From: an uncultured Desulfuromonas sp.
GTDB taxonomy: Bacteria > Desulfobacterota > Desulfuromonadia > Desulfuromonadales > Desulfuromonadaceae
Direction: 5' to 3'
Length of the DNA stretch: 64,000 nt
NCBI RefSeq assembly: GCF_963678835.1
Contig: NZ_OY787470.1
Location: 248,001-312,000, forward strand
Below are positions 695 through 59,845 of this stretch, in pieces (position 1 is the first letter of the stretch; each line of letters begins with the position of its first letter). The notes under the pieces are model-generated. The model worked only from the letters and a program-made list of their open reading frames with translations, was not told the origin of the DNA and searched no databases. The position numbers were made by a program, and so were the translations under genes.

Positions 695-1274
695 GGGTGG
701 GCATTGCCCACCCGTTAGATCGGTGCCACACCAGAGATAGAGCGCGACTGAAGATTGTTATCAACGTTTTACGCCAAAGCTGATGCGTTGCACGATTCGC
801 CGACCTAAAGGGCGGCGAGCCGGATCTGCAAAGCATAACGGAAACAGACCCATTGTCGGTTGATCTGAGGTTCAGGAGAAGTTCAAGCTGGTTTTTGCAT
901 CCTTTTGAGCGGCCAGTCAAAAGGATGTCGGCTGCCGGGACGAACCCCGGCGACCTTGACTTTGATCTTGAGATTCAGTGGTTCGTAATACGCAACGAAT
1001 CGCACCGGCGAACATCATCCGTTCGCGAAGGTGGTACCCACGTGACGCGGGCTTCCGCGCCCGCACGTCGGGGCACTTTTGCGTCGACAAAAGTACCGCA
1101 AAATCGACTCCCGTCATTGCACCCTCCGGGTTCCCTCTCTCCATTCTCTTACATCGCAATGTCGGCAAAACTCGCTACCGCTCAAACAGGTTGCCGACAA
1201 CCATTGCGCTGACGTTCATTGCGTTCGGTGCTGCTGAACGGGAGGGCTTGGCTGCTCAATAACACACGACTGCA
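695..1274 (+). repeat. Family A hairpin-mosaic repeat, unit A1
   Basis: The unit opens with the inverted repeat GGGTGGGC/GCCCACCC (695-713). It continues with further hairpins: CATCCTTTTGA/TCAAAAGGATG at 898-927, GCCGGG/CCCGGC just after, GCGGGC/GCCCGC at 1047-1064, ACTTTTG/CAAAAGT at 1075-1094, and the long-loop stem CGCAATG..CATTGCG enclosing TCGGCAA/TTGCCGA at 1155-1208. A degenerate hexamer tract (GACCTT, GACTTT, GATCTT) sits near 953-972. The unit ends where A2 begins. ORFs crossing it are not conserved in reading frame between copies, so I treat it as non-coding. It lies between convergent genes. Confidence 0.9.
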
Positions 1275-2017
1275 GGGCGGGCACCGTCCCGCCCGTTTGA
1301 TCGGTGCCACACCAGTGATAGAGCGCGACTGAAGATTGTTGTCAACATTTTACGCCAGAGATGATGCGTTGCATGATTCGTCGACCTAAAGGGCGGCGAG
1401 CCGGATCTGCAAAGCATAACGGAAACAGACTCATTGTCGGTTGATCTGAGGGCCAGGAGGTATTCAGGCTGGTTTTTTCATACTTTTGAGCGGCCAGTCA
1501 AAAGGATGTCGGCTGCCGGGACGAACCCCGGCGACCTTGACTTTGCCTTTGATCTTGATCGTCAGTGGTTCAGATTTCGGAACAGGTCGCGCTGGCGAAC
1601 ATCAGCTATTCACACCAGTTGGTTCCCACGTGACGTGGGCTTCCGCGCCCACACCTCGGGCCACTTTTGCGTCGACAAAAGTAGCGTAAAATCGACCCCC
1701 AAGGGGTTGTCATCAATCAGCCTTCACGGAGTTGTTGCGGATCTTTTTCACGTCATCCGCGTTATCGGTCGTCGCCATAGAACGACTATAGCTCCTCCCT
1801 CTGCCTTGCTGACGCAAAAAATCTCACGCAACACCTCTCGTTCATCTGATTAATAACAACCCCAATGCCCCCTACGGGTTCCCTCACGCCATTCACTTAC
1901 CCTGCGATGTCGGCAAAAACTCGGCCTGTGTGCCACAGTCCTCAAACAGTTTGCCGACACCCATCGCAGCGACGTTCACTCTGTTCGGCGCTACTGAACG
2001 AGGGGGCAGGGCTGCTA
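1275..2017 (+). repeat. Family A hairpin-mosaic repeat, unit A2 (long form)
   Basis: A tandem second unit in the same orientation as A1. Its first hairpin is GGGCGGG/CCCGCCC (1275-1294), a compensated version of A1's. The GTGGGC/GCCCAC pair at 1635-1652 is likewise a compensated version of A1's GCGGGC/GCCCGC, and the TGCGATG/CATCGCA arms (1903-1909, 1972-1978) of A1's CGCAATG/CATTGCG. Relative to A1 it carries an extra module of about 190 bp, roughly 1700-1865, shared with A3 and A6. The end is approximate. It finishes about 30 bases before the 3' end of the convergent aminotransferase gene. Confidence 0.9.
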
Positions 2018-2046
2018 AGAATAGAGAGTTGCGAGTAAGCTGTCAT

Positions 2047-3198
2047 TCAGGAACGTTCTTGCAACCACTGCTCTAAACGATCCGTGGCTTCTTTAAGGCG
2101 TTCCATGCTGTTGGCGTAAGAGAAACGCAGGAACCCTTCACCACCACTGCCAAAGTCAATACCAGGTGTCACGGCCACGCCGGTTTCAGCAAGAATTTCC
2201 CGCGCCAGCGCCATGGAATCGTGACTCAAATGGCGGGCATCGGCAAACACGTAGAAGGCTGCGACCGGCTCGCTGTGGATGACAAATCCCAGCTCCTTGA
2301 GCCGGGCAACGAGGTATTTGCGGCGCTCGTCGTAGGCTTGACGCATCCGTTCCACATCGTCATCACAATCGCGCAGCGCAACAATCCCGGCGTGCTGAAT
2401 AAAACTGCCGGCACAGATCAAAAAGTTCTGGTGCAGGCTCTGTAACACGCGCACCGCCGCTTTGGGGGCGATGAGGTAGCCGAGACGCCAGCCGGTCATG
2501 GCGTAGGTCTTGGAAAATCCGCCGAGGACAAAGGCCTGGTCGGTGAATTCGAGAATGCTGTGTTCGTCGCCCTGATAAGTCAAGCCATGATAAATTTCGT
2601 CGGAGATGATCGGCACCGGCAGCGACGCCAATTGTTGCAGCCAGTCTGCCGATAATAACGATCCGGCCGGATTGGATGGCGAGTTGATCAGCAGGCCGCG
2701 GCTGCGGGATGATAAAGCCTTGCGCACATCCTGCGGATCAGGCTGAAAGCCCTGTTCTGCACGGGTGGTAATTTCCACTGGCACCCCGCCGTTGAAGCGG
2801 ATAAAATTGGCGTAACAGGCGTAGCCGGGATTGGTCAGGACCAGTTCATCGCCGGGATCAAGCAGGGCGGCGAACAGCAGCAACATCAGCGGGCTGGTTC
2901 CCGACGAGACAATCACCTGTTCCGGATCAACGGTGACCTTGTAACGGCGCTGGTAGTGGCGGCAGATCTCCTGACGCAACTCCAGGAGCCCCAGCGAGTG
3001 GGTGTAGGCGGTATGACCGTCGGCAATCGCTTGTTGGACGGCGGCAACGATTTTGTCCGGTGTGGAAAAATCAGGCTCTCCCAGGCACAGGTAGATGATA
3101 TCGTGGCCAGTGGCTTCAAGTTTTTTGGCCTGTTCCATCACCTCCATGGCGAGAAACGGTGTGACCTCTTGGGCGCGTTGAGATAGATGCAATGACAT
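2047..3198 (-). CDS. Pyridoxal-phosphate aminotransferase, class I/II
   Basis: A fold-type I PLP aminotransferase, transferring an amino group between an amino acid and a 2-oxo acid; the substrate cannot be told from sequence. The schiff-base lysine is in GGFSKTYAMTGWRLGYL (Lys about 230). NSPSNPAG and DEIYHGL are the usual PLP-contact segments, and CLGEPDF lies near the N-terminus. I chose the start at 3198 because GGAAG lies five bases upstream. The frame is open to 3264, but the extra 22 residues look unlike the family. It is divergent from the macro-domain gene at 3335 and convergent with the family A repeats. Confidence 0.9.
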   Translation of the reverse strand: MSLHLSQRAQEVTPFLAMEVMEQAKKLEATGHDIIYLCLGEPDFSTPDKIVAAVQQAIADGHTAYTHSLGLLELRQEICRHYQRRYKVTVDPEQVIVSSGTSPLMLLLFAALLDPGDELVLTNPGYACYANFIRFNGGVPVEITTRAEQGFQPDPQDVRKALSSRSRGLLINSPSNPAGSLLSADWLQQLASLPVPIISDEIYHGLTYQGDEHSILEFTDQAFVLGGFSKTYAMTGWRLGYLIAPKAAVRVLQSLHQNFLICAGSFIQHAGIVALRDCDDDVERMRQAYDERRKYLVARLKELGFVIHSEPVAAFYVFADARHLSHDSMALAREILAETGVAVTPGIDFGSGGEGFLRFSYANSMERLKEATDRLEQWLQERS

Positions 3199-3334
3199 AG
3201 AGCTTCCATGGTTCGGGTGGCAGGGATATCTGGACAATATGCGCCAAGCCGCTATATTTGACAAGAGGCCGCTGTGGTTGCGGTTTCACATGACTTCTGT
3301 TTGCTGAGGTCTTTTTCTCCACATGGAGAGTGTT

Positions 3335-3880
3335 ATGAAGCAGATTGAAATTGTCCGGGGCGATATTACCCGCCTGCAGGTTGATGTGATTGTTAATGCT
3401 GCGAACACGTCATTGCTCGGCGGAGGTGGCGTAGACGGTGCCATTCACCATGCTGCCGGGCCACAGTTGCTCGAAGAGTGCCGCACCTTGGGCGGCTTCC
3501 AGACCGGCGATGCCAAAATGACGCGCGGTTATGATTTGCCCGCTCGCTACGTGATTCACACGGTTGGCCCGGTATGGAAGGGAGGGCAACACAATGAGGA
3601 GATGCTTCTGGCCGCCTGCTACCGCAACAGTTTGAAGCTGGCGGTCTCCCATGGTTTGAGCACCATCGCTTTTCCCGCCATTAGTTGCGGGGTCTATCGG
3701 TTTCCCATTGAGATTGCCAGCGAGATCGCGGTGCGTGAGGTATGTGCAGTGCTCGAACCGAGTAGTGTGCTGGACCGCGTCCTTTTTGCTTGTGTTGATG
3801 AGTCGATCAGTCAGGCGTTACAGGCGAGCCTGGCTCGACGTCGTCACTCGGCCTGTGGCCAGTCTTTCCAGAATTCCTGA
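3335..3880 (+). CDS. Macro-domain protein, canonical copy (O-acetyl-ADP-ribose deacetylase-like)
   Basis: A 181-residue single macro domain. It carries RGDIT (8-12), [19 protein letters not shown] (20-38) and [11 protein letters not shown], matching YmdB-type enzymes that hydrolyse O-acetyl-ADP-ribose and mono-ADP-ribosyl esters. The catalytic-loop Asn (Asn24) and Asp34 are both present, unlike the copy at 109-690. An upstream in-frame ATG at 3323 exists. The start at 3335 has GGAG at a normal distance and aligns with the MKRIEI start of the paralogue. Its last 37 bases overlap the convergent membrane-protein gene. Confidence 0.92.
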
Positions 3881-4278
3881 CTGCCATACAGCAACCCGAC
3901 CGCCAGACTCATGTCGAGTGTCGCCACGGCGATCAGGCCGATATAAGACCCTTGTGCCCAGGTGGAGAGCAGAGCCCCTGTGGCAATCATCACGGTAAGC
4001 ATCAGGTAGAAAACACCACGATAACATTGCCAGAGCTGAGGGTGATGGAGCTGGCGAATGCGCCGACGATTTTTTCGGCAGGCGCGGCGAAACATCCACT
4101 GTCCTTTAACACTTCCCAGAATTGCCCCTGCACCGGGAGCCAGCCAATGCTGCCATTGTTGCGGGCGCAGCTCGTCTGCGGCCAGCAATAGTTCACCGCC
4201 TTTGGCAAACAGAGCAATGCTGCCGGTGTACCAGATAACAGCGGCAAGAATGTTGAGATGTTGGTGGTGGATCATCAT
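3844..4278 (-). CDS. Small integral membrane protein, unknown function
   Basis: A 144-residue protein with hydrophobic stretches near residues 8-26, 44-58, 88-110 and 113-133, suggesting three or four membrane helices. A basic loop ([13 protein letters not shown]) lies about residues 64-76 and would sit in the cytoplasm by the positive-inside rule. I do not recognise the family. The gene is divergent from pyk and overlaps the macro-domain gene end to end, which is tolerable for convergent genes. A start two residues in (second ATG) is equally possible. Confidence 0.6.
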
Positions 4279-4381
4279 GATGTGACCTGATATGGTGGTG
4301 AGGGTAAACGAACGACTTCTACTTTAACCATTTCATCACGGCAAATCCAGTGTTGCGCTGGTGGGCGTGTGAGGATTTTTT

Positions 4382-5806
4382 ATGCGACGAACAAAAATAG
4401 TCTGCACCGTGGGCCCGGCTTCGGCGGATGAAGCGGTTCTGGAGCAGATGATCAGCAGCGGCATGAATGTGGCCCGGCTCAATTTTTCTCATGGTGACCA
4501 TGAGTCCCATCGTCAGTTGATTGAGCGGATTCGCACGGTGGCCCAGCGGCTTAACCAGCCGGTGGCGATTCTTCAGGATCTATGTGGCCCGAAAATCCGT
4601 CTCGGCCAATTGCCGGAGCAGGGGGTGCGACTGCATCAGGGCGATGCCGTGAATTTGTGTTCCACGGACCAGGCCGGTGAAGGTGATCTGCCGGTCGATT
4701 ATCCCGGTTTGCATGAAGATGTTCAGGTGGGGGACTCCATTATGCTTGCTGACGGGCTGATGGAATTACAGGTTGAGCGGATTGATGCGCCCCAGGTTGA
4801 GTGCCGCGTCATTAGCGGCGGCGTCGCCTACAGCCGTAAAGGCGTTAATATGCCGAGCAGCCACCTGAGTATTCCGGCCTTTACCGAGAAAGATCGCGAC
4901 GATCTGCGGTTTGGCCTGCGGCAGGGGGTGGACATTGTTGCCCTGTCATTTGTGCGCGGCGCTGACGATCTTAAAGAGATCCGCACCATGCTGGCCGAGG
5001 TTCCTGAGGCGCCCAAGCTGGTGGCGAAAATTGAGAAACCGCAGGCTGTTGCCCATATTGAAGAGATTCTTGACGTGGTGGATGTGGTAATGATCGCCCG
5101 TGGCGATCTTGGCGTGGAGGTGCCGCTGGAGCAGGTGCCGGTGTTGCAGAAGCAACTGATTCACAAGGCGCGCCTTAGAGGCAAAGCCGTCATCACCGCG
5201 ACGCAAATGCTCTCAAGCATGGTGTCGAATCCGCGCCCAACCCGGGCGGAAGCTGCGGATGTCGCCAATGCCATCTATGATGGAACCGATGCCCTGATGC
5301 TCTCCGATGAGACGGCCTCCGGTGATTATCCGGTGGCGGCAACGCAGATGCTTGACCGCATTGCCCGTTCCACGGAACCGCACCTGGACAGCGCCCTGAG
5401 CATGATTCAGGACGATGACAACGATCCACCTCAGGTGTCCTGGGCGGTTGGCCGTGCGGCGGTGACGCTGGCCGAAGATCTGCGTGCCTCGGCGATTGTG
5501 GCTTATACCCAATCCGGGTTTACCGCCTCATGTGTGTCACGCTTTCGTCCCGACTGTCCGGTGATCGGTTTGACCACCAATGAACAGCGGTGTCGGCAGA
5601 TGAATCTGTTGTGGGGGGTGTTGCCGGTCACGATTGAGCCGTGTAACGATACCGATGAGATGTTTGAAAAGGCGCGCGAAGAAGTGATCAAGCGTCATCT
5701 GGTCGCAGCCACCCAACGGATCGTGGTGACGGCGGGAACTCCGTTGTGGCAATCGGGTTCAACCAATTTACTCAAAGTGATTGAACTGGCCGAGGCGACA
5801 GCGTAA
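4382..5806 (+). CDS. pyk: Pyruvate kinase
   Basis: Catalyses phosphoenolpyruvate + ADP to pyruvate + ATP, the last step of glycolysis, in the cytoplasm. At 474 residues it has the classical length with no C-terminal PEP-utilising domain. The N-terminus RRTKIVCTVGPAS and NVARLNFSHG are family hallmarks. The active-site signature VAKIEKPQAV is followed by MIARGDLGVEVP, which binds metal and substrate, and TRAEAADVANAIYDGTDA is also canonical. GAGG lies six bases upstream of the ATG. It is followed 49 bases later by a small HEAT-repeat gene in the same direction. Confidence 0.97.
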   Translation: MRRTKIVCTVGPASADEAVLEQMISSGMNVARLNFSHGDHESHRQLIERIRTVAQRLNQPVAILQDLCGPKIRLGQLPEQGVRLHQGDAVNLCSTDQAGEGDLPVDYPGLHEDVQVGDSIMLADGLMELQVERIDAPQVECRVISGGVAYSRKGVNMPSSHLSIPAFTEKDRDDLRFGLRQGVDIVALSFVRGADDLKEIRTMLAEVPEAPKLVAKIEKPQAVAHIEEILDVVDVVMIARGDLGVEVPLEQVPVLQKQLIHKARLRGKAVITATQMLSSMVSNPRPTRAEAADVANAIYDGTDALMLSDETASGDYPVAATQMLDRIARSTEPHLDSALSMIQDDDNDPPQVSWAVGRAAVTLAEDLRASAIVAYTQSGFTASCVSRFRPDCPVIGLTTNEQRCRQMNLLWGVLPVTIEPCNDTDEMFEKAREEVIKRHLVAATQRIVVTAGTPLWQSGSTNLLKVIELAEATA

Positions 5807-5855
5807 AACCTGAATCTATGAGTGATAAGAACAATCGAAGTGACGAGGTGTTGCC

Positions 5856-6422
5856 ATGGAACAGCAGCGGCGTGAAGCGTTAATCCCTTTATTGCAGGAC
5901 CCGCAGGAGCAGGTGAGACAGGCGGCGACAGAGGCGTTGGCGCAGTTGGACCAGCGCAATCATGCCGACCAGTTGCTCACGCATCTGGCCAGTGGTTCGC
6001 CGCAACAGAAAATTTCCGCTCTGTTCGGCCTGGAGGCGGTGGAGAGTGACGCTGTCAGAACCGCTCTGTGCGCGGCTCTTAAAGATGATGAGGCGGATGT
6101 CCGTGCGGTGGCGGTTCAGGTGGTGGGGCGCAAACGTTACCCGGCGGCGCTGAACGACTTGGTCAATTGTCTGCAGGATCGCCATCCGGCGGTTGCGGTG
6201 TATGCAGCCCAGGCTCTGGCGCATTATAAAGATGCGCGGCTGGTACCCTATTTTGAAACCATCTATCGGCGCGGCGATGAAGAGCTGCAGTGCGCCTGTC
6301 TCAACGCGTTGGGAGAGATGGGCTTTGCCACCGCTGAAGCTTGTTTGCTTGATGCTCTGAACAGCAGCTCTGCCACGGTGCGGGCGGCTGCTGCAACGGC
6401 TCTGGGACAGCTTGTCGATTGA
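5856..6422 (+). CDS. HEAT-repeat (PBS lyase-type) protein
   Basis: A 188-residue protein made almost entirely of alpha-helical HEAT repeats of about 31 residues, with recurrent phrases such as LLQDPQEQVRQAATEALAQL, LKDDEADVRAVAVQVVG and LNSSSATVRAAAATALGQL. Such proteins are protein-binding scaffolds. GAGG precedes the start at normal spacing. It probably shares a transcript with pyk. The convergent operon at 6431-9334 also encodes a HEAT-repeat protein, so the two may act together (inference). Confidence 0.85.
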   Translation: MEQQRREALIPLLQDPQEQVRQAATEALAQLDQRNHADQLLTHLASGSPQQKISALFGLEAVESDAVRTALCAALKDDEADVRAVAVQVVGRKRYPAALNDLVNCLQDRHPAVAVYAAQALAHYKDARLVPYFETIYRRGDEELQCACLNALGEMGFATAEACLLDALNSSSATVRAAAATALGQLVD

Positions 6423-6430
6423 TTTTTGGG

Positions 6431-7753: not shown

Positions 7754-7756
7754 AGG

Positions 7757-9486: not shown

Positions 9487-9645
9487 GAACAGGATGTTAA
9501 AAACGTCCCGTCCGGGGATTTTTCAACGACGCAAGCCGAAAATGCGATTTCCGTCTTGCTCACAAAATCAAGGACTTGAAAAACGGTCCTTGATTTTGAT
9601 CGCTCGTCCATGGGCTCCACAGTCTGTTTTTCAACAGCCTGCTAA
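9487..9645. repeat. Family B miniature element, copy 1
   Basis: An element of about 160 bp with imperfect terminal inverted repeats: ACAGGATGTTAAAAAC on the left and TTTTTCAACAGCCTGCTA on the right. An internal hairpin has a 12-bp stem, AAAATCAAGGAC/GTCCTTGATTTT, at 9564-9597. A second copy at 49560-49720 shares the order TIR, CGAAAATGCGATTTCCG, hairpin, CGTCCATGGGCTCCACA, TIR. There is no coding capacity, so this is MITE-like. It sits between hemL (3' end) and the divergent side of the HEAT operon promoter. Confidence 0.85.
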
Positions 9646-9684: not shown

Positions 9685-9705
9685 GGTAACGATAATGATT
9701 TTTTG

Positions 9706-38216: not shown

Positions 38217-38946
38217 ATCCGTTCACGTTATTTGGTACGCACGTGACGTGGGCTTGTGCGCCCACATGTCGGGCTCCTTTTGCGTCGACAAAAGGGGCGC
38301 AAAATCGACTTCCAGGGGGGTGTCATCAATCAGAGTTCACGGAGTTGTTGCAGATCTTTTTCACGTCAGCAGCGTTATCGGTGGTCGCCATAGAACCACT
38401 ATGGCTCCTTGCTCTGCCTTGCTGACGCAAAAAATCTCAAGCAACAGCTCTCGTTCCTCTGATTCATAACAACCCCAATGCGCCCTAGCGGGTTCCCTCA
38501 CTCCATTCCCTTACACCGCGATGTCGGCAAGACTCGCCCAGTCGGCATCAGTCCTCAAACAATTGCCGACAACCATCGCGCTGACGTTCATTGCGTTTGG
38601 CGCTGCTGAACGGGAGGACTGAGGTGCTAAATGACACACTGCTGTAGGGTGGGCACCGTCCCACCCGTTTGGTCGGTGCCACACCAGAGATAGAGAAAGA
38701 CGAAAGATTGTTATCAACGTTTTACGCTAGCGTTGATGATGTGCACGATTCGTCGACCTAAAGGGCGGCGAGCCGAATCTGTGAAACTTGACGAAAATGG
38801 ATTCATTGTCGGTGGATTCAGGTTCAGGGGGTGTCCAAGCTGGTTTTTGCATCCTTTTGAGCGGCCAGTCAAAAGGATGTCGGCTGCCGGGACGAAACCC
38901 GGCGGTCTTGACCCTGGGTTTTGACCCTGATTTTGGTCTTGAGATT
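38217..38946 (+). repeat. Family A hairpin-mosaic repeat, unit A3 (permuted)
   Basis: This unit holds the same modules as A2 but begins in the middle, at the GTGGGC/GCCCAC hairpin, and ends with the hexamer tract. It therefore reads as a circular permutation. Visible hairpins are CCTTTTG/CAAAAGG (38276-38295), CCATAG/CTATGG, CGCGATG/CATCGCG (38517-38523, 38574-38580), GGGTGGG/CCCACCC (38647-38666) and CATCCTTTTGA/TCAAAAGGATG. It lies upstream of a shikimate kinase gene in the same direction, the only locus not between convergent genes. Confidence 0.88.
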
Positions 38947-49559: not shown

Positions 49560-49720
49560 TAGCAGGATGTTGAAAAAAGTCCCATCCCGGAGCTTTTCAG
49601 CGACGCAACCCGAAAATGCGATTTCCGCCTTGCTGACAAAATCAAACACGTGAAAACCAGTTGTTGATTTTGGTCGTCCGTCCATGGGCTCCACAGGCTG
49701 TTTTTCATCAACCCTCTGAT
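49560..49720. repeat. Family B miniature element, copy 2
   Basis: It has the same architecture as 9487-9645: TAGCAGGATGTTGAAAAA at the left end and CTGTTTTTCATCAACCCTCTGA at the right as imperfect inverted ends. The internal AAAATCAA/TTGATTTT hairpin is less complete than in copy 1. There is no coding capacity. The element lies between a REP pair and a transposase fragment. Confidence 0.85.
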
Positions 49721-49774
49721 AGGACATTCCCGTCCGAAGAAAGCCCCGAAAGGCCAACCCCGGAGGAATTATTC

Positions 49775-49888
49775 GTCAGTTGTGCTGTCAAAAAAAGAGT
49801 TGACCTCGTTGAAGGCAATGGGACAAGTGACCATATTCACATGGTGTTGAGTTTACCGCCGGAGTATAGCATCGCCATGCTGAGATAA
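49775..49888 (+). pseudogene. Fragment of an IS200/IS605-type TnpA (Y1, HUH)
   Basis: The frame reads VKKRVDLVEGNGTSDHIHM then VLSLPPEYSIAML and stops. DHIHM within that phrase corresponds to the HUH motif of IS200-type single-strand transposases, and the PP.YS motif follows as in complete enzymes. The N-terminal half and the catalytic Tyr helix are missing, so this is a remnant. Confidence 0.65.
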
Positions 49889-49908
49889 AGTGGGTTCATG
49901 CCATTCGG

Positions 49909-50061
49909 GTGAAAACTCCAGAGATTGTGGAGTTTCTTGTCGACCCCTGGAGTGAATATGCTGCGGTGTGGAAGGTCAATCCCATGACCTTTGAATTCAA
50001 CAAAATCAGAGGTTTTGATACGTATAAAGATCGTGAATATGTTGATATGGTGGTTTGGTGA
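49909..50061 (+). pseudogene. Short ORF or gene fragment, unknown
   Basis: A frame of 50 residues from GTG reads EIVEFLVDPWSEYAAVWKVN and ends DREYVDMVVW. It is also open a little upstream. The residue mix looks protein-like but matches no family I can name. No ribosome site is evident. It follows the TnpA fragment directly and is probably another remnant. Confidence 0.35.
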
Positions 50062-50079
50062 GCCTTTAAAGGAGATGCT

Positions 50080-50352
50080 CTAAGATTTAAAGTCTTTGTG
50101 GCGTTGCTTTTCTTTTTTGAATGAGCTCATTTTTTTCCTGATACCGAGTGCAATCAAATAAGCGAAGAAAAGAAATGCTAGTTGAGCAGCTGTGAGCAAG
50201 AGATTTTCCTTTGTGAATACATTTTCAAGAGAGAAGGGGCTGTTGGACGTGTTGAGAAATAGCTGACGGAAAAATACATTGAGAGCGATAAATAAAGAAA
50301 CCGCAACTAAAAATAAAACTTCTCCCGTCGAAGGTTTATAATCCTTTCCCAT
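50080..50352 (-). CDS. Small membrane protein, unknown function
   Basis: A 90-residue protein with hydrophobic segments near residues 12-28 and 52-70 (AAQLAFLFFAYLIALGI) and a basic tail (KKMSSFKKEKQRHK). I do not recognise it. It is the last of three minus-strand genes with AT-richer DNA than their surroundings, suggesting acquisition. The gap to the preceding gene is 26 bases, so they likely share a transcript. Confidence 0.6.
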   Translation of the reverse strand: MGKDYKPSTGEVLFLVAVSLFIALNVFFRQLFLNTSNSPFSLENVFTKENLLLTAAQLAFLFFAYLIALGIRKKMSSFKKEKQRHKDFKS

Positions 50353-50378
50353 CCTGCCTCTGCAAAAAATAGTGAAAA

Positions 50379-50765
50379 TCAGGCTTGCGTTTCAAGATTC
50401 TCCGATTGGGTTTTCCTGCATTCATAAACTAGAATAAGCATAAAGATAACAATGGCTCCAGAGGGTTTTGCCAGACCAAACAGAGGCCACAGGAACCTAT
50501 TAAATTTCAAGTCTTTAGCCTGGTAGAATAGCCAGGTGCCAACGGCAATATTGAAGAGGAATCTTATTCCCTGAAGGCCAAGTAAAATGTAATTTATTTT
50601 TTCAGGGATGTTCCCTTTGCTTGCAAAGATCGCATCGGCAGAATGTTTTAAAAGTTCGGCATTTAAAAAATTTGCCAGCACTGACAAAATAAAAAAGGGA
50701 ATAAGCCATTTCAGCAGATTTTCAAATCTCGTGCGGATGTTGATCTCCATCGTATATTTCCCCAT
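50379..50765 (-). CDS. Membrane protein, unknown function
   Basis: A 128-residue protein with three probable membrane helices (about residues 18-34, 60-78 and 100-115: GAIVIFMLILVYE). The function is unknown. The second ATG at 50750 has GGGG at better spacing and may be the real start, shortening it by five residues. It follows the VanX-like gene after 14 bases, pointing to an operon of three. Confidence 0.6.
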   Translation of the reverse strand: MGKYTMEINIRTRFENLLKWLIPFFILSVLANFLNAELLKHSADAIFASKGNIPEKINYILLGLQGIRFLFNIAVGTWLFYQAKDLKFNRFLWPLFGLAKPSGAIVIFMLILVYECRKTQSENLETQA

Positions 50766-50779
50766 GTCTTTTCAAAAAC

Positions 50780-51469
50780 TCATTCAATGATGGTGTATTT
50801 CTTCCGAGCTAAGTCTTTTTCCATTCCGTTGAAATGCCACCATTCAAAGCTCAGCGGTAAAAATCCTGCCTGTTTCATCGTCTCGGAAAGAAGTTGTCGG
50901 TTGCTTTTCTGTTCTGGTGAAAGCTGTTTGCCGAGCTTTTTCAGGGCGTATTCCCAGTAAAGTCGGACAGTGCTTCTTCTGAACGGTGTGATGCCCATGT
51001 CCAGTTCCTCACCAGTGTCATCGACAATGGTGATATCAACGGCGATGCCGTAATTGTGCATAGATCCTTTTGCCGGGTTGGCAACAAACCGTTCGAACTT
51101 GGTGCCCTTCATTTTATCGTACATGGCTTGAGATACGCTGCGAGGTCGTGCTGTGTCCAGAACCTGTAAGGAATAGAAGGGATGTTTTGATTTTAAGATT
51201 TCCTGAGCTTTGGCCAGCTTTACCGCCACCTCGCGTTGCAGGTAGGCTGTACGAAGCCCCTTGTAGAAGTTTTCGCGAAAGAAATTTTTGTCAGGATCCG
51301 AGTTGACCAAGTCAATTTGTATCGTGGGATCAATTGTCGAAACGTTAATCAGACCAGCGGCAATGAACCGCTTTTCGATTTCATTGGCATTTGCCTGTGA
51401 AGAAAATGTAGCGAGTAAGAATAAAAGAACAACAATGATTCGGGGGATTTTTATCTTCATTGCTCTCAT
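50780..51469 (-). CDS. D-alanyl-D-alanine dipeptidase-like (VanX family) exported peptidase
   Basis: A 229-residue protein with a signal peptide (residues about 1-28, IIVVLLFLLATFSSQANA). The M15D zinc-site motifs are SMHNYGIAVDITIVD (SXHXXGXAXD) and FEWWHFNG, holding the Glu and last His. TARPRS supplies the conserved Arg. VanX/DdpX enzymes hydrolyse D-Ala-D-Ala; with a signal peptide this one would act in the periplasm, a wall-recycling or scavenging role rather than the cytoplasmic resistance role. I use the start at 51469 with AAGGA; the frame is open to 51505. It is the first gene of the AT-richer trio. Confidence 0.88.
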   Translation of the reverse strand: MRAMKIKIPRIIVVLLFLLATFSSQANANEIEKRFIAAGLINVSTIDPTIQIDLVNSDPDKNFFRENFYKGLRTAYLQREVAVKLAKAQEILKSKHPFYSLQVLDTARPRSVSQAMYDKMKGTKFERFVANPAKGSMHNYGIAVDITIVDDTGEELDMGITPFRRSTVRLYWEYALKKLGKQLSPEQKSNRQLLSETMKQAGFLPLSFEWWHFNGMEKDLARKKYTIIE

Positions 51470-51718
51470 AAATGGTCCTTGGTGGTTGTCTAAAAATATG
51501 TGCACAACTTACGCCCATTAGATTGATTTTACAATTTCTTTAATTGTTTTTTCCTGCACTGCGAAACGTGGAGGAGTTTTGTTCATGTTTCCAGGCGAAG
51601 CACATTTCCACGAAAAAATTGAAAATCAGTTTGCTGATCAAGTCATTTCGGTTAACCTGATTTGAGAATAAATACAACCTATTGAATCACTGAGCCGGTT
51701 TGGGAGGGAGGATTGCAC

Positions 51719-52069
51719 ATGACTGTCAGTCGTGAACCAAACACCATGATGAAAGTGGTTATTTTGACCCACAACTATCGGGTTGTCGGACGGGTGTATG
51801 TCAAAAAAGGCGCCCGGTTGACCGATGCCGTGTGTGAGGCGCGCCAGTTTATTGCCGTGGCTGAAGCGCAGGTGTGGGAGCGTCAGAGCGGGAATCATCT
51901 GTTACAGGCCGGGTTCATCAATGTCAGCCGTGACGAGATTGAGATTATCCTTCCTGCCGATGCGGTAGACTGCGAGTGTGATGACATGGGCAGTCTGGGA
52001 ACCTGGCTGCTTCAGCGACGCCACGACGCGGATGATGATCAGCAGGAACTTGACCTTGACGTAGACTGA
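51719..52069 (+). CDS. Conserved-looking small protein upstream of PilT-type ATPases
   Basis: A 116-residue protein: an N-terminal segment TMMKVVILTHNYRVVGRVYV, then a globular part, then an acidic tail (DADDDQQELDLDVD). It has no signal peptide and no known motif. GGGAGGGAGG lies seven bases upstream of the ATG at 51719. It is 66 bases before the first PilT-type gene and probably shares its transcript, hence a possible motor accessory (inference). Confidence 0.65.
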   Translation: MTVSREPNTMMKVVILTHNYRVVGRVYVKKGARLTDAVCEARQFIAVAEAQVWERQSGNHLLQAGFINVSRDEIEIILPADAVDCECDDMGSLGTWLLQRRHDADDDQQELDLDVD

Positions 52070-53596: not shown

Positions 53597-53635
53597 TAAT
53601 GGCTGTTTGTGTTGCTGTCGCAAAGGAGGGATGTT

Positions 53636-54694
53636 GTGGCTCAGATTGACCGCTTGTTTGATATTATGCTGGACCGAGGAGCGTCTGACCTGCACCTGCT
53701 GCAGGGCCAACCGCCGAAGATCCGTGAGCATGGCCGCATGGTGGCCATTGATGGCGAAGCGCCCATCAATGAGGAGCAGATGATTGGCTACCTCAAGGAG
53801 ATCTGTGTACCGGAGCGCTGGACCGAGTTTCTGGCCAATAAAGATCTCGACTTTGCCTACGAAAAAGATGAAAAAGCGCGTTTCCGCGCCAACTACTACG
53901 GCCAGTTGCATGGTATGGGCGCGGTGTTTCGCGTTATTCCCACCAAGATTCTCACCATGGAGGAGCTGCACCTGCCCGAGGTGTTGAAATCGTTTGCCGC
54001 GTTGCGCTCCGGGCTGGTGCTGGTGACCGGGCCGACCGGCAGTGGTAAGTCCACCACACTGGCTGCGATCATCGATTACATCAACGACAATTATTCGCGT
54101 TATATTCTGACCATTGAGGAACCCATCGAGTTTGTTCACCCCAACAAGCGTAGCGTGTTCTGTCAGCGTGAGGTGGGCAGTGACGTGCATTCGTTTGGCG
54201 ATGGCCTGCATACCGCTTCACGCCAGGATTGTGATGTCATCCTGGTCGGCGAAATGCGCGACTACGAAACCATTTCTCTGGCGCTGTCCGCCGCGTCGAT
54301 GGGCACGCTGGTGTTCGGCACCCTGCACACCAATTCAGCGGTGAAAACCATCGACCGGATTATTGATGTGTTCCCCTCGGATCAGCAGGGCATGGCGCGC
54401 ACCATGCTGGCCGATTCGCTGCGCGGCATCTGCGCTCAGTTGTTGCTGAAAAAAGAGGGGGGCGGGCGGATTGCCGCCAATGAGATTCTCATCGGTACGA
54501 CGGGGCTGGCGGCGAGTATTCGTGAAAATAACATTGGCAATATCCGTAACATCATCCAGGGTGGTAAGAGCTTGGGCATGCAGATGATGGATGATGTGCT
54601 GGCCAGTTATCTCAAAGATGAACTGATCAGCCCGGATGAAGCGTATCTCAAGGCGCAGGATAAAAATCGGTTTAAGCCGAAGGATGAAGGATAA
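53636..54694 (+). CDS. pilT: Twitching-motility retraction ATPase PilT
   Basis: A hexameric ATPase that depolymerises type IV pili. The 352-residue protein has ASDLHLLQGQPPKIREHG, Walker A TGPTGSGKSTTLAA, ILTIEEPIEFVHPNK, Walker B DCDVILVGEMRD, and GTLVFGTLHTNSAVKTIDR. The C-terminal IRNIIQGGKSLGMQMMDD replaces the usual AIRNLIRE-type segment. The GTG start at 53636 has AAAGGAGGG; the frame is open to 53609. Together with the preceding longer paralogue it forms a PilT-PilU-like pair. Confidence 0.92.
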   Translation: MAQIDRLFDIMLDRGASDLHLLQGQPPKIREHGRMVAIDGEAPINEEQMIGYLKEICVPERWTEFLANKDLDFAYEKDEKARFRANYYGQLHGMGAVFRVIPTKILTMEELHLPEVLKSFAALRSGLVLVTGPTGSGKSTTLAAIIDYINDNYSRYILTIEEPIEFVHPNKRSVFCQREVGSDVHSFGDGLHTASRQDCDVILVGEMRDYETISLALSAASMGTLVFGTLHTNSAVKTIDRIIDVFPSDQQGMARTMLADSLRGICAQLLLKKEGGGRIAANEILIGTTGLAASIRENNIGNIRNIIQGGKSLGMQMMDDVLASYLKDELISPDEAYLKAQDKNRFKPKDEG

Positions 54695-54728
54695 TTTCGT
54701 TTTGTTCGGAGTTGTGAGCGGTAAGATC

Positions 54729-55350
<622 letters not shown>

Positions 55351-55735
55351 TGAAGAGCAAGGTCAAAGTCAAGACCGCCGGGTCTCGTCCCGGCAGCCGA
55401 CATCCTTTTGACTGGCCGCTCAAAAGGATGCAAAAACCAGCTGAACACCTCCTGAACCTGAATCCACCGCTACTGTGTCTGTTTCCGTTATGCTTCACAG
55501 ATTCGGCTCGTCGCCCTTTAGGTCGACGAATCGTGCAGCTCATGACCATTGGCGTAAAACGGTGATAACGAGCTTTCGTCTTTCTTTATTTCTGGTGTGG
55601 CACCGATCTAACGGGTGGGGCGGAGCCCACCCTCCAGCCGTGAATTATTTAGCAGCTAAGCCCTTCTTCCGTTTAGCAGCACCGAACGCAATGAACGTCA
55701 CGTGCGTACTAAGTCGCATAAACGGATGTTTTTTG
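55351..55735 (-). repeat. Family A hairpin-mosaic repeat, unit A5
   Basis: A shorter tandem minus-orientation unit: hexamers AAGGTC, AAAGTC, AAGACC, then GCCGGG/CCCGGC-like arms, CATCCTTTTGA/TCAAAAGGATG (55401-55430), and GGGTGGG/CCCACCC (55613-55632). It is truncated in the end module (about 55670-55735). Confidence 0.88.
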
Positions 55736-55770
55736 GGGAAGCTGACTGTTGCGTATCACGATAGGGAAGA

Positions 55771-55807
55771 AATGAAAAAGGCCCCGCAGTGCGGAGCCTT
55801 TTTCATT
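55771..55807. terminator. Terminator at the dnaJ end
   Basis: AATGAAAAAGGC/GCCTTTTTCATT with inner CCGC/GCGG pairs and a small loop, directly past the dnaJ stop. T-runs exist on both strands. Confidence 0.85.
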
Positions 55808-55824
55808 TCGATCTGAGCTGTCAG

Positions 55825-56727
55825 CTAGAGTCCCTGCTTCTGCAACTCCTCCAACAGAGCCTTCTGCTCATCAGTCAACTGCTTGGGCACCTTCACCATC
55901 ACCTGAGCGTAAAGATCCCCGGCCGGGTGTTTGCCATGAGCCGGCACTCCATGACCGCGCAAACGGATACGGCTGCCATTGGCGGTGCCCGCCGGCACCT
56001 TGATCCGCTTTTCACCATCAAGGGTTGGCACCGCTGCACTGGTGCCGAGGCAGGCACCGCTGAACGGCACCGAAACCTGAACCTGCAGGTTGTTGCCATC
56101 GCGGGTAAAATGGGCGTCCTTGTCGACGGTAATCTCCAACAGCAGATCGCCTGATTTGCCGCCGGTGGGGCTGGGACCACCTTTGCCGCCGACTCGCAGC
56201 TTCTGGCCGGTTTCAATGCCGGGCGGAATCCGCACTTGAATCTGCTCATTGTGGCCGTCGTGGCTGTAATTGATCATCCGTTCGCCACCGGTTACCGCCT
56301 GACGAAACGGCAGGTTAACGCGCATTACATAATCCTGGCCCTTGACCTGTTGGGGACGCCCCTGATGAAACGCCGAGCGCCGTCCACGGCCACCACCCAT
56401 GCCACCAAACAGCTGGCTGAAGATGTCGTCACCGCCCATGCCGAATTCGCGGAAAATATCGCCGAAATCAGCACCGCGAAAGATATCTTCCTGTGAATAA
56501 CGCTGATGAAAGCCCGTGTCACCAAACTGGTCGTACTGGGTCTTTTTTTCCGGATCACTGAGCACCGCATAGGCCTCACTGATCTCTTTGAACTTTTCCT
56601 CGGCCTGCTTGTCGCCGGGGTTTTTATCGGGATGATATTTAACGGCGAGCTTGCGATAGGCTTTTTTGATCTCTTGCTCCGAAGCCTGTTTGGTCACGCC
56701 GAGAGTTGCGTAATAGTCTTTTGCCAT
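55825..56727 (-). CDS. DnaJ-type co-chaperone (CbpA-like, no zinc finger)
   Basis: A 300-residue Hsp40. The J domain (1-70) has [10 protein letters not shown], the HPD motif that stimulates DnaK. A Gly/Phe-rich region (about 75-125, [15 protein letters not shown]) follows. Two beta-sandwich substrate domains come next ([36 protein letters not shown]). The CXXCXGXG zinc repeats are absent, so it is class B/CbpA. It ends next to a strong terminator; upstream 278 bases separate it from divergent hemG. Confidence 0.93.
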
Positions 56728-56924
56728 GAAAAACTCCTGTCTTCCGGATCAATTGCCAGCGCATGTAATATAAGGCTGCCTTTTAGGATCGTCAAGGGGC
56801 GCACCAATTATGCTGATTTTCTGATGAAAAAGCAGCCGTTAATCGGTGAAAGATATGCGAGTTTTTAGACTTTTTAGCAGGAATAATGCTATGATCTTTC
56901 GGTAGAAAAGAGGGGGCGTTTTCT

Positions 56925-57008
56925 ATGTCTCATTCTTCTCACAGAGAACTCACCCTAATCCGCAGACATGATCTTATCTGGCGCATGACAAGGAGCGTTT
57001 ATCCATGA
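56925..57008 (+). CDS. Possible 27-residue leader ORF overlapping the hemG start
   Basis: An ATG after a GAGGGGG run opens a 27-codon frame (starts MSHSSHREL, ends WRMTRSVYP). Its TGA overlaps the hemG ATG as ATGA. Such overlaps couple translation. A TATGAT hexamer lies about 30 bases upstream, a possible -10 box. No homologue is known to me and a chance ORF this short is common. Confidence 0.3.
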   Translation: MSHSSHRELTLIRRHDLIWRMTRSVYP

Positions 57009-58399
57009 CACGAGTGGCAATTATTGGAGCCGGTGTTTCCGGACTGGCGACAGCCTATGCCCTGGAAAAAGGGGCGCAAGCACAAAATATCGATGTGCAG
57101 ATTACCGTGATCGAAAAGCAGCAGCGCAGTGGCGGAAAAATCTGGAGCCGCCACGAAAAGGGCTACCTGTGTGAATGGGGTCCGAATGGCTTTCTTGATA
57201 ACAAACCGGCCACCCTCGATTTGTGTAAGGCGCTGGTCATTGACGATACTCTGTTGCGCTCCAACGACAATGCCCGCAAACGATTTATTTTCAGCGACAA
57301 TATGCTCCATCGTCTGCCGGAAAACGGTCCGATGTTTCTTGGCTCCAAGCTGATCAGCTGGCCGGGTAAATTTCGTCTGGCCGGTGAGATGTTTGTGCCA
57401 GCCAAGAAGGATGAGCGTGATGAGACGCTGGCCGAATTTGGTCGTCGCCGTCTTGGTGCTGAAGCTTTGGACAAGCTGATTGCCCCCATGGCCGGTGGCA
57501 TCTTTGCCGGTGATCCGGAGACCATGAGCCTGAAGAGCTGTTTCCCGCGTATTGCCCAGTTGGAGCAGGAATACGGTGGTCTGCTTAAGGCGATGATCAA
57601 GCTGGCGCGCAAGAAAAAAGCCGAGCGCAAAGCCGGTAAACAGGTGGCAACGGCCGCCGGGCCCGGCGGTGTGCTCACCTCATTTAACGGCGGTATTCAG
57701 GAATTGACTGACGCTCTGCAGGAGTCTCTGAGCGCCACGTTGCGGTTTGGGGTGGCGGTTGAGAGCATGGAATATTTTGATAATTACATTCTCGGTCTCA
57801 GTGATGGCAGCCAGCTCGATGCTGATGTGGTAATCAGCGCGGCACCCGCCCATGCGTTGTCTGGAATGCTGAAAAAGATGAATGGCGAAGCGGCCAAGCT
57901 GCTGAATCAAATTCCTTATGCGCCGATGAATGTGGCCTGCCTTGGTTTTAATCGCGCGGATCTGCAGTGTGACCTGAACGGCTTTGGTTATCTGATTCCG
58001 AAAAAAGAGGGCTGCTCCGTTCTCGGCACTTTGTGGGATTCGAGCATCTTTCCGCATCGAGCGCCGAAGGATAAAGTTTTGCTGCGTTCCATGATGGGGG
58101 GCGCGACCCGGCCGCAAGCCATTGACTTGAGCGATGATCAGGTGCTGGCGCTGGTGCAGGCGGATCTCGAACGGATCATGGGCATCAAAGCGACCCCGGA
58201 GATGGTGCGGATTTTCCGTCATCAGCAGGCGATTCCTCAGTATGTGTCGGGCCATGCCGCGTTGGTCGCGCAGATTCGTCAGGAGCTGAGTTCGTGCCAA
58301 GGGTTCTACCTGACCGGCAATGCCTTTGAAGGGATCGGCCTCAACGATTGTGTGACTAATGCCAATAAAACAGCCGCTGAAGTGCTGGCGGCTCTTTAA
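57005..58399 (+). CDS. hemG: Protoporphyrinogen oxidase (HemY/PPO type, hemG)
   Basis: An FAD enzyme that oxidises protoporphyrinogen IX (or coproporphyrinogen III) to the porphyrin. The 464-residue protein opens with VAIIGAGVSGLATAYALEKG (dinucleotide fold). GGKIWSRHEKGYLCEWGPNG and IAPMAGGIFAGDPETMSLKS are PPO motifs. GNAFEGIGLNDCVTNANKTA near the end contacts FAD. AAGGAG lies at normal spacing before the ATG. It is one of four haem genes in the window. Family A repeats start directly after it. Confidence 0.94.
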   Translation: MTRVAIIGAGVSGLATAYALEKGAQAQNIDVQITVIEKQQRSGGKIWSRHEKGYLCEWGPNGFLDNKPATLDLCKALVIDDTLLRSNDNARKRFIFSDNMLHRLPENGPMFLGSKLISWPGKFRLAGEMFVPAKKDERDETLAEFGRRRLGAEALDKLIAPMAGGIFAGDPETMSLKSCFPRIAQLEQEYGGLLKAMIKLARKKKAERKAGKQVATAAGPGGVLTSFNGGIQELTDALQESLSATLRFGVAVESMEYFDNYILGLSDGSQLDADVVISAAPAHALSGMLKKMNGEAAKLLNQIPYAPMNVACLGFNRADLQCDLNGFGYLIPKKEGCSVLGTLWDSSIFPHRAPKDKVLLRSMMGGATRPQAIDLSDDQVLALVQADLERIMGIKATPEMVRIFRHQQAIPQYVSGHAALVAQIRQELSSCQGFYLTGNAFEGIGLNDCVTNANKTAAEVLAAL

Positions 58400-58407
58400 T
58401 GCCTTAT

Positions 58408-59203
58408 ATAACTTCCCGTTCAGCAGTGTAGAACGTAAAGAGTGTTGTTATATAAGACCGTTGAAGGTCAAGATCAAAGTCAAGGTCGCCGGGTCTCGTC
58501 CCGGCAGCCGACATTCTTTTGACTGGCCGCTCAAAAGGATGCAAAAACCGGCTGAACACCTCCTGGCCCTCAGATCAACCGACACTGAGTCTGTTTCCGT
58601 GATGCTTCACAGATTCGGCTCGCCGCCCTTTAGGTCGGCGAATCGTGCGTCTCATCATCTTTGGCGTAAAACGTTGATAACCAATTGAAGCTGCACTTTA
58701 TTTTTCCCGTGGCCCCGCTCAAACGGGTGGGACGGTGCCCACCCTTGCGGCAGAGTGTCATTTAGCAGCCAAGCCCTCCCGTTCAGCAGCGCCGAACGAA
58801 GAGAACGGTCATCGCGATGGTCGTCGGCAACCTGTTTGAGGACTGATGCTGCCGATATCGCGGTGTTAGTGAACGCAGAGAGGGAACCCGTAAGGGCGCA
58901 ATGGGGTTGTTATTGATCAGATGAACGAGAGGTGTTGCGTGAGATTTTTTGCGTCAGCAAGGCAGAGGGAGGAGCTATAGTCGTTCTATGGCGACGACCG
59001 ATAACGCGGCTGACGTGAAAAAGATCCGCAACAACTCCGTGAAGGCTGATTGATGACAACCCCTTGGGATTCGATTTTGCGGTACTTTTGTCGACGCAAA
59101 AGTGCCCCGAAGTGCGGGCGCGGCAGCCCGCGTCACGTGGGTACCATCATTGTGAACGGATGAAGTTCGCCGGTGCGATTCGTTTCGGATTACGAACCAC
59201 TGA
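58408..59203 (-). repeat. Family A hairpin-mosaic repeat, unit A6 (long form)
   Basis: A minus-orientation unit beginning with a partial end module, then hexamers (AAGGTC, AAGATC, AAAGTC, AAGGTC). It has CATTCTTTTGA/TCAAAAGGATG (one wobble), GGGTGGG/CCCACCC (58725-58744), CGCGAT/ATCGCG, the optional module of about 190 bp, and GCGGGC/GCCCGC. It lies between the convergent hemG and chemoreceptor genes. Confidence 0.88.
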
Positions 59204-59553
59204 AGAGCAAGGTCAAAGTCAAGGTCGCCGGGTTTCGTCCCGGCAGCCGACATACTTTTGACTGGCCGCTCAAAAGTATGCAAAAACCGGCTGAACACCT
59301 CCTGAACCTGGATTAACCGACACTGTGTCTGTTTCCGTCATGCTTCACAGATTCGGCTCGCCGCCCTTTAGGTCGGCGAATCGTGCAACTCATGGCTATT
59401 GGCGTAAAACGTTGATAACCGTTTGACGTCTCACTCTATTTCTTCCGTGGCCCCGCTCAAACGGGTGGGACGGTGCCCACCCTTGCGGCAGAGTTGTCAT
59501 TTTGCAGCCCAGCCCTCCCGTTCAGCTGCACCGAACGCAATTCGATCTGAATG
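59204..59553 (-). repeat. Family A hairpin-mosaic repeat, unit A7
   Basis: A tandem short unit. CATACTTTTGA/TCAAAAGTATG (59251-59280) is a fully compensated variant of the CATCC/GGATG arms seen elsewhere, and GGGTGGG/CCCACCC lies at 59463-59482. The end module is truncated. Confidence 0.88.
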
Positions 59554-59845
59554 ATGAACCACTGAAGCTCAAGATCACAGTCAAGGTCGCCGGGTTTCGT
59601 CCCGGCAGCCGACATGGCCGCTCAAAAGGATGCAAAAACCAGCTTGAACACCTCCTGAACCTGAATTCACCGACACTGAGTCTGTTTCCGTTGTGCTTCA
59701 CAGATTCGGCTCGCCGCCCTTTAGCTCGGCAAATCGTGCAACGCATCATCTATGGCGTAAAACGTTGATAGCAATTTTCTGCCTCTATCTATTTCTGGTG
59801 TGCCACTGATCAAACGGGCGGGACGGTGCCCGCTCTACGGTTGTC
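59554..59845 (-). repeat. Family A hairpin-mosaic repeat, unit A8
   Basis: The last tandem unit. The left arm of the TTTTGA hairpin is deleted: CATGGCCGCTCAAAAGGATG remains. GGGCGGG pairs imperfectly with CCCGCTC (59816-59835). It is degenerate compared with A5 and A7. The convergent chemoreceptor gene ends about 130 bases further on. Confidence 0.85.

What the first reader, a model, noticed from the sequence alone, without database searches (positions are those of the whole stretch)
695..59845. Repeat family A: eight hairpin-mosaic units at four intergenic loci
Seen: units at 695-1274, 1275-2017, 38217-38946, 54729-55350, 55351-55735, 58408-59203, 59204-59553 and 59554-59845 share ordered modules, each built on an inverted repeat, and cover about 4 kb of the window. 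Three of the four loci are between convergent genes. No reading frame is kept, so it is not a gene family. I know no named element with this architecture. It may be an undescribed structured RNA, a non-autonomous mobile element moved as single-stranded DNA, or a chromosome-organising site; these are inference.
Basis: partly seen in the sequence, partly recalled or inferred. Interest (0 to 1): 0.88.

Follow-up and report, generated by a model that had tools for sequence, protein, structure and literature searches.

The report
Giant hairpin repeats between bacterial genes
The window carries copies of a large non-coding DNA repeat built from paired hairpins that sits mostly where two genes run towards each other and whose hairpin core recurs in nearly every sampled genome of the same bacterial order, which suggests an old repeat family that behaves like, but is not the same as, the known small palindromic repeats of bacteria.

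Summary
The eight units belong to a family with at least 73 loci (96 kb) in a 4.5 Mb Desulfuromonas genome. Window locus 2 is one complete element. A covariance model of the core matches 125 of 136 genomes of the order, 111 of them more than once; outside the order matches are few and mostly marginal. In 19 multi-core clusters from other genera, 45 of 45 neighbouring cores alternate in orientation, as in BIMEs. The stems covary, and both strands of an element fold equally well. No shared reading frame and no intact linked Y1 transposase were found. In the own genome 41 of 69 loci lie between convergent genes, against 13 of 213 gene pairs without an array. Best reading: a giant BIME/MITE-like DNA element that works as hairpin DNA, not as an RNA. 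Its spread is probably mobilisation in trans plus recombination; that step is inferred. New variant of a known kind.

The parts
695..2017 (+). locus 1: array of two tandem units (580 and 743 bp) between convergent genes
887..955 (+). core A (twin hairpin), 94.1 bits
1043..1108 (-). core B (inverted partner of core A), 28.8 bits
   Evidence: found by a model not built from B copies
1029..1545 (+). complete elementary element of locus 1 (B to A, without insert I)
   Evidence: borders set at the outer ends of the cores (inference)
1468..1536 (+). core A, 87.3 bits
1631..1696 (-). core B, 22.7 bits
1701..1862 (+). insert I: 162-bp near-complete inverted repeat
   Evidence: 45 I copies against 94 full-length B and 97 full-length C copies
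759..771 (+). IHF-consensus-like site TATCAACGTTTTA in module A (consensus recalled)
38232..38912 (+). locus 2: one solitary complete element, B - I - C - A
38244..38309 (-). core B of locus 2, 19.5 bits
38314..38475 (+). insert I of locus 2, absent from the orthologous element of relative G008
38839..38907 (+). core A of locus 2, 94.0 bits
54729..55735 (-). locus 3: array of one complete element and a partial unit, between convergent genes
54729..54796 (-). hexanucleotide repeat (CTTGAC on the - strand) at the outer end of core A
54791..54859 (-). core A, 89.8 bits
55218..55284 (+). core B, 17.6 bits
55373..55441 (-). core A, 92.7 bits
58464..59833 (-). locus 4: array of one complete element with insert I plus partial units, between convergent genes
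58484..58552 (-). core A, 90.4 bits
58903..59064 (-). insert I of locus 4
59070..59135 (+). core B, 18.5 bits
59223..59291 (-). core A, 94.6 bits
59585..59643 (-). core A with a deletion in hairpin 1, 52.3 bits

Best explanation
This is the Desulfuromonas branch of an old, order-wide family of giant BIME-like DNA elements. The elementary element is about 450-690 bp, carries no gene, and has at each end an inverted copy of a 65-nt core: TTTTGC, hairpin 1, GTCGsCTG, hairpin 2 with a loop like GRCGAR. Shown: the inverted cores, their alternation, covariation of the stems, intergenic placement with a strong excess between convergent genes in this genome, positional conservation between species with changing unit number, and decay by deletion. 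Inferred: the hairpins act as folded DNA (single-stranded or extruded); new copies arise when a trans-acting enzyme or replication template switching copies the element through its hairpin ends; tandem arrays then grow and shrink by recombination between head-to-tail units; and copies survive mainly at gene 3' ends because they break no promoter there. A secondary BIME-like role there (IHF or gyrase binding) is possible but not shown.
For: Core model R1 in 125 of 136 genomes of the order and 48 of 53 genera, at most 37 candidates scored per genome. Covariation score 0.361 against 0.098 shuffled and at most 0.076 slid, 94.9% of 1168 cells paired. Module B is found as an inverted core by a model not trained on it: 5 in the window, 76 full-length inverted matches in 34 own stretches by my hand count. 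45 of 45 neighbouring cores alternate in 19 multi-core clusters of other genera, and inverted pairs also occur alone. 41 of 69 own loci convergent against 13 of 213 pairs without an array. Both strands fold equally, z -6.8 to -7.3. G-T versus A-C intermediates 81 to 79 cells. Orthologous arrays with different unit number and deletion remnants. Module A copies 85.3% alike between and 89.4% within arrays. C-type hairpin with fixed loop and differing complementary arms, 23 of 24 arm pairs at 8-9 of 9.
Against: No intact transposase is linked to the cores: none of 65 stretches around Y1 matches (some overlapping, only part of all Y1 matches outside the own genome) holds a core, and Y1 genes also occur in relatives where the core model finds nothing (G004, G010, G012). 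Two weak broken Y1 matches do lie near cores: G002 C1:869438-869659 (21.1 bits, below cut-off, one stop), about 85 bp from an array, and G026 C1:3852330, about 2.5 kb from one. No target-site duplication or clean empty site. The convergent bias is not seen in my 27 loci from other genera (5 convergent, 5 divergent, 17 co-directional). In the order-wide alignment G-T exceeds A-C, 34 to 11, mostly in one poorly paired helix, so an RNA on the core strand is not excluded. The free alignment gives only 3 of 16 covarying pairs and a covariation term of -0.12 kcal/mol. The IHF-like site is missing in 18 of 19 element stretches tested from other genera.
Confidence: 0.6

Rival explanations
1. Chromosome-organising or supercoil-relief site, kept by selection: arrays between convergent genes collect positive supercoils and bind gyrase and/or IHF, as known for E. 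coli BIMEs.
For: 41 of 69 loci convergent against 13 of 213 pairs; IHF-consensus-like site in 67 of 117 A copies against 10 of 2340 shuffled copies; alignable array DNA more conserved than third codon positions, 94.3 against 79.9% in G008, 83.3 against 65.2% in G002, 81.3 against 58.6% in G007.
Against: The same site bias is expected if insertion elsewhere is harmful; the Pseudomonas fluorescens paper calls it a 'least worst' location (passages of PMC2718517). The bias is absent in 27 loci from other genera, the IHF-like site is not order-wide, loci 2 and 4 are largely missing in relatives, and conservation was measured only where arrays align and may reflect gene conversion.
Confidence: 0.2
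2. Structured non-coding RNA, or RNA 3'-end stabiliser/terminator, made by read-through from neighbouring genes.
For: Strong covariation, very stable folds, position at gene 3' ends, more G-T than A-C pairs on the core strand order-wide, 34 to 11.
Against: Equal folding of both strands, no wobble asymmetry within the genome, no fixed orientation to genes (7 and 6 of 13 co-directional loci), no Rfam match, few wobble pairs in the main stems (8 of about 1000 cells).
Confidence: 0.12
3. Decaying relic without present activity: an ancient repeat now changed only by tandem recombination, gene conversion and deletion.
For: Module A copies about 85% alike with no pair above 98.1% between arrays; same loci in relatives; half-deleted remnants.
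Against: Pairs above 99% identity between different arrays exist for B (8), C (37) and I (21); cores are often identical within a genome (eight equal-scoring copies in G035), which needs continuing spread or conversion; the own genome has at least 150 core copies (capped).
Confidence: 0.25

Closest known systems
BIME / REP elements (E. coli, Xanthomonas)
   Same: Extragenic palindromic units in alternating orientation, tandem clusters, IHF-like site between cores in this genus
   Different: Core is a 65-nt twin hairpin instead of a 20-40-nt single palindrome, no GTAG or CGTC tag at the stem foot, unit is 450-690 bp, no RAYT beside it in the own genome
REPIN (inverted REP pair mobilised by RAYT; PMC3116915 seen in a search listing only, features recalled)
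   Same: Two inverted palindromic ends around a spacer, non-coding, many copies
   Different: Several times longer (REPIN size recalled), ends without a RAYT-type tag, no RAYT link found
MITE
   Same: Non-coding, inverted ends, many intergenic copies
   Different: No target duplication seen, no parent transposase with these ends found, tandem arrays are common
Pseudomonas fluorescens intergenic repeats R178 and R200 (passages of PMC2718517)
   Same: Intergenic repeats of a set biased to convergent gene pairs; R178 has internal inverted repeats
Multicopy intergenic sequences of Geobacter metallireducens (passages of PMC2700814)
   Same: Described in a member of Geobacteraceae; hypothesised IHF/HU sites
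   Different: The motifs named in the passages (octamer, heptamer, pentamer repeats) do not match this core; supplements not readable here
BOX elements and Neisseria mosaic elements (recalled; dRS3 named in a passage of PMC3733652)
   Same: Mosaic of ordered hairpin modules (recalled)
   Different: Different hosts; sequences not compared here

Membership tests
BIME / REP | palindromic units in alternating orientation, clustered | tested here: met
   45 of 45 neighbouring cores in 19 clusters alternate; inverted B cores between A cores in the own arrays
BIME / REP | extragenic | tested here: met
   no gene called inside any of 47 arrays (home-made gene caller)
BIME / REP | palindrome of 20-40 bp tagged GTAG or CGTC at the foot | tested here: not met
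   core read from alignments: twin hairpin of 65 nt, neither tag at a stem foot
BIME / REP | linked RAYT (Y1) transposase flanked by the repeats | tested here: not met
   own genome: none of the 26 Y1 matches covered by 18 fetched stretches has a core there, the 27th lies in the window about 5 kb from locus 3 (one place read through its duplicate L144); elsewhere no core in the stretches tested, but one broken Y1 fragment lies about 85 bp from an array in G002
BIME / REP | binding of gyrase, IHF or Pol I | not testable with these tools
   only an IHF-consensus-like site counted
MITE | terminal inverted repeats | tested here: met
   inverted cores at both ends of solitary elements
MITE | target-site duplication | tested here: inconclusive
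   none evident by eye at eight two-core solitary elements; no clean empty site
MITE | parent transposase with the same ends | tested here: inconclusive
   only Y1 was searched; other transposase families not tested
structured RNA family | match to a described family | tested here: not met
   Rfam gathering 0 hits in the window; lax search of loci 3 and 4 gives four rows with E 0.14 to 0.95, all below gathering
structured RNA family | structure on one fixed strand | tested here: inconclusive
   symmetric; leans to one strand
protein-coding repeat | shared open frame | tested here: not met

The most novel reading that the evidence does not exclude
A so far unnamed superfamily of mosaic repeats whose hairpins are read as folded single strands: loops and linkers are fixed while stems drift by compensation. 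The window shows a large, arrayed form. The twin-hairpin core is kept by a whole bacterial order, and related single modules (a hairpin 1-like stem, and a hairpin with the loop AAACTCGCTnCGCTCAAACA) recur in other families of the phylum, on large replicons of Beta- and Gammaproteobacteria and on some viral contigs. An unknown enzyme that reads single-strand hairpins, distinct from RAYT, would spread and homogenise it.
Probability: 0.3. Interest if true: 0.82.

Novelty: new variant of a known kind. Interest (0 to 1): 0.62.

Why it matters
About 2% of this genome (at least 96 kb) is one non-coding repeat family, and its core is present in 125 of 136 sampled genomes of the order, which is rich in metal- and sulphur-reducing bacteria (recalled). 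If the hairpins are read as single strands, the family gives a natural collection of covarying substrates for finding the enzyme. If the arrays act at convergent genes, it gives a testable system for how bacteria handle supercoiling at gene ends.

Tried and rejected
RNA family: rejected as the main reading, kept as a rival. RAYT link: presence of Y1 cannot discriminate (15 of 16 and 13 of 13 genomes); no core beside the Y1 matches tested, apart from one broken fragment near an array in G002. Plasmid or phage carriage: no match of the unit in plasmids or phages, of an A-module word or a core pattern in viral contigs, or of one order-level core in plasmids; one order-level B-type core has one weak hit, on a Paraburkholderia replicon; the hairpin 1-like part of a distant module is found on 10 records. 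Clean insertion site: loci 2 and 4 in relatives give remnants or unalignable spacers; one array of G008 is replaced by unrelated sequence in the own genome; one solitary element of another genus is half deleted or reduced to its end in two congeners. Insert I as a separate mobile hairpin: within units it always sits at the same place, so it is treated as an optional module, although one I-like hairpin stands alone beside an IS200 copy. Arrays more conserved than their flanks: true at locus 1 (97.0 against 88.6%) but not overall (87.1 against 89.5% over 11 pairs, one of them badly aligned). Local tandem duplication as the only source of copies: rejected, because for module A the best match lies in another array in 83 of 108 cases. 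Paper searches listed no paper whose title or abstract start names this element; most hits were not listed, and subscription papers and supplements could not be read.

Rows dropped and limits: one search listed about 150 of its 196 matches, so the first array set (47) was incomplete; searches scored at most 37, 12 and 150 candidates per genome, so 150 own cores is a floor and absence outside the order is weaker than it looks (G020 and G027 match but not); arrays within 200 bases of a fetched end and BLAST pieces under 50 bases were left out; four partial matches were left out of the list used, and stretches for one search were picked from strong hits; one search's output was cut. The gene callers are home-made.
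Full report
What is there. The window is bases 248001-312000 of contig 2 of a 4.5 Mb genome. A pattern scan of named species genomes hits only Desulfuromonas sp. BM513 (10 stretches), whose contig lengths equal those of congener G001, so I take the genus to be Desulfuromonas. The unit 1275-2017 has 196 matches in the genome, and at least 150 core copies exist (capped at 150). After fetching two sets of stretches I count 73 loci and 96,143 bases of arrays.

Anatomy. On the 743-bp unit the modules are A (1 to about 271), a linker with CTTGAC-like hexamers, B (about 300-426), an optional 162-bp near-complete inverted repeat I (427-588) and C (589-743). The most conserved part of A is a 65-nt twin hairpin: TTTTGC, hairpin 1, GTCGsCTG, hairpin 2. 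A covariance model of it, R1, built from A copies only, finds B as an inverted core: 5 full-length matches in the window and 76 in 34 own stretches by my hand count, beside roughly 130 A matches. In 20 stretches from 16 genomes of other genera R1 gives 28 clusters; 19 hold more than one core, and in these all 45 neighbouring cores alternate in orientation (the stretches were chosen from strong hits). Inverted pairs 400-600 bp apart also stand alone. The elementary element is therefore [B core inverted - (I) - C - A core], about 520 bp, or about 680 bp with I. Window locus 2 is one such element. After hairpin 2 of A, 133 of 165 ends continue with at least two TTG words in 6-base phase, against 110 of 5000 random places.

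Structure. On 81 core matches from 53 stretches (74 distinct; four of the stretches also served to build the model) 94.9% of 1168 cells are standard pairs; 12 of 16 pairs have changes on both sides; the covariation score is 0.361 against 0.098 for shuffles and at most 0.076 for slid partners. That alignment was fitted to the model, which favours the structure; the free alignment of 25 sequences shows 3 of 16 pairs with changes on both sides and a covariation term of -0.12 kcal/mol. Within the genome, A-C and G-T intermediates are equal (304 and 305 cells in consensus stems; 79 and 81 in strict stems, with A-C commoner at 7 and G-T at 4 pairs). Order-wide, G-T is commoner (34 against 11, mostly in the weak inner helix; 8 against 2 in the main stems). 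The complete element of locus 2 folds with z of -7.1 and -6.9 as DNA and -6.8 and -7.3 as RNA on its two strands. I read this as DNA hairpins or cruciforms more than as a stranded RNA; it is not proof.

Distribution. The whole unit is recognisable by DNA in 11 of 40 genomes, the own one included: own genus, one other genus of the family and, weakly, one genus of another family. R1 finds the core in 125 of 136 genomes of the order (48 of 53 genera), in 111 of them more than once, up to the 37 scored. In a sample of 395 genomes of the phylum, with 12 candidates scored per genome, 7 of 9 members of the order match; of the 386 others 23 do, 22 of them with a single match and most near the threshold; G397 (E 1.9e-12) looks genuine by its layout, G194 (3.0e-8) is unclear. 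The two missed members of the order match, so weak copies elsewhere may be missed too. The hairpin of module C has relatives further away: the loop pattern AAACTCGCTnCGCTCAAACA occurs in 10 of 395 genomes (one in the order), up to 25 copies, with no match to the reversed control pattern in the rows shown, and on 6 viral contigs, in 4 of which the arms pair; the other two, nearly the same sequence, lack pairing arms. Of 24 distinct arm pairs around the loop, 8 of them from loci fetched before these scans, 23 are complementary at 8-9 of 9 places (best of 16 offsets; several differ by one base only); the same test 40 nt upstream never exceeds 6. The own C loop carries one more base, so the own genome has no exact match. 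A hairpin 1-like piece is found on 10 large replicons listed as plasmids, of Paraburkholderia, Pseudoalteromonas and Aeromonas, at 283 places or more; R1 matches the three that I fetched weakly at the expected place (E 1.7e-5, 1.9e-4 and 0.0075).

Place among genes. In the first set, 31 of 45 arrays with both neighbours called lie between convergent genes, 13 between co-directional and 1 between divergent ones; in the co-directional cases the array points either way (7 and 6). In the larger set 41 of 69 are convergent, 26 co-directional and 2 divergent, against 13 of 213 convergent among gene pairs without an array in the same stretches (Fisher p about 9e-20). In the window, 3 of 8 convergent pairs and 1 of 17 ++ pairs carry an array, none of the 8 divergent and 11 -- pairs. 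In my 27 loci of other genera with both neighbours the bias is absent (5 convergent, 5 divergent, 17 co-directional; cruder gene calls).

History. Relatives G008, G002 and G007 are syntenic over much of the window, and where they align their third codon positions agree with ours at 79.9, 65.2 and 58.6%. Locus 1 is shared with G008 and G002; the stretch was not fetched for G007. At locus 2 G008 has the element without I; G007 has the A part; G002 keeps a remnant of about 55 nt. At locus 4 G008 has a decayed remnant, G002 and G007 none that I could see. Nine of 11 further G008 stretches have their arrays at the places of ours, with other unit numbers, which a draft assembly may undercount (output cut; one search adds one array of a tenth). 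Alignable array DNA agrees at 94.3, 83.3 and 81.3%, well above third codon positions and slightly above other intergenic DNA (89.3, 81.0 and 78.0%), but only alignable parts count, chiefly loci 1 and 2. Copies of A within the genome agree at 85.3% between and 89.4% within arrays; I copies at 94.0% between arrays; pairs above 99% between arrays occur for B (8), C (37) and I (21) but not A. So the family is old, positionally stable, homogenised as a pool and trimmed by deletion.

Mechanism. Shown: inverted hairpin ends, alternation, change of unit number, decay. Not shown: how new copies arise. Y1 transposases are near-universal in these genomes, and none of 65 stretches around Y1 matches (some overlapping) holds a core. 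In the genus the A module carries an exact IHF-consensus-like site in 67 of 117 copies, as BIME-1 spacers bind IHF (PMC2817692, passages). One such site per repeat unit has a chance of roughly 2% by my estimate, and of 19 element stretches tested from other genera only that of G026 has it. I therefore prefer a giant BIME/MITE-like DNA element, mobilised in trans or by replication errors at hairpins and tolerated at gene 3' ends, over a selected chromosome site or an RNA.

Compared with the known. Architecture matches BIMEs; core, tag, unit size and enzyme link do not, so I do not file it as a REP/BIME member. The convergent bias was reported for Pseudomonas fluorescens repeats (PMC2718517, passages). 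The GTAG/CGTC survey (PMC3733652, passages) does not mention Desulfuromonas, Geobacter or Pelobacter in its main text. Paper searches listed no description of this element, judged from titles and abstract starts of the listed part of open papers.

Noticed in passing
window 9499-9639 and 49573-49713: A second repeat family, two copies of 141 nt, 84% alike, containing GTTTTTCAACAGCCTG-like arms; a similar piece flanks the partial array at the start of L041.
   Followed up: no
window 49875-50690: 98.8% identical to relative G008 while the next stretch agrees at about 90%, beside a low-GC stretch (42.8% at 50001-52000): possibly a recently acquired segment.
   Followed up: no
window 49760-49876: Weak Y1 transposase fragment (25 bits), about 5 kb from locus 3.
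   Followed up: no
L149 921-1081 (own contig 1, about 3625420-3625580): A lone I-like 160-bp hairpin, about 72% identical to module I, abutting an IS200-type element; module I may have a life of its own.
   Followed up: partly
L034 and L035 3' array ends, window 54729-54796: The hexamer at the outer end of core A differs by locus (CTTGAC, TTGCTC, TTTTGG) but keeps its 6-base phase, as if made by slippage at the element end.
   Followed up: partly
L313-L332, L307-L312: Hairpins with invariant loop AAACTCGCTnCGCTCAAACA and differing complementary arms in distant families and on four of six viral contigs, several beside a TACTTTT...AAAAGTA-like hairpin.
   Followed up: partly
L336 2439-2660 (G002 C1:869438-869659): Broken Y1 fragment about 85 bp from an array: the only case seen of a transposase remnant beside this repeat.
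   Followed up: partly
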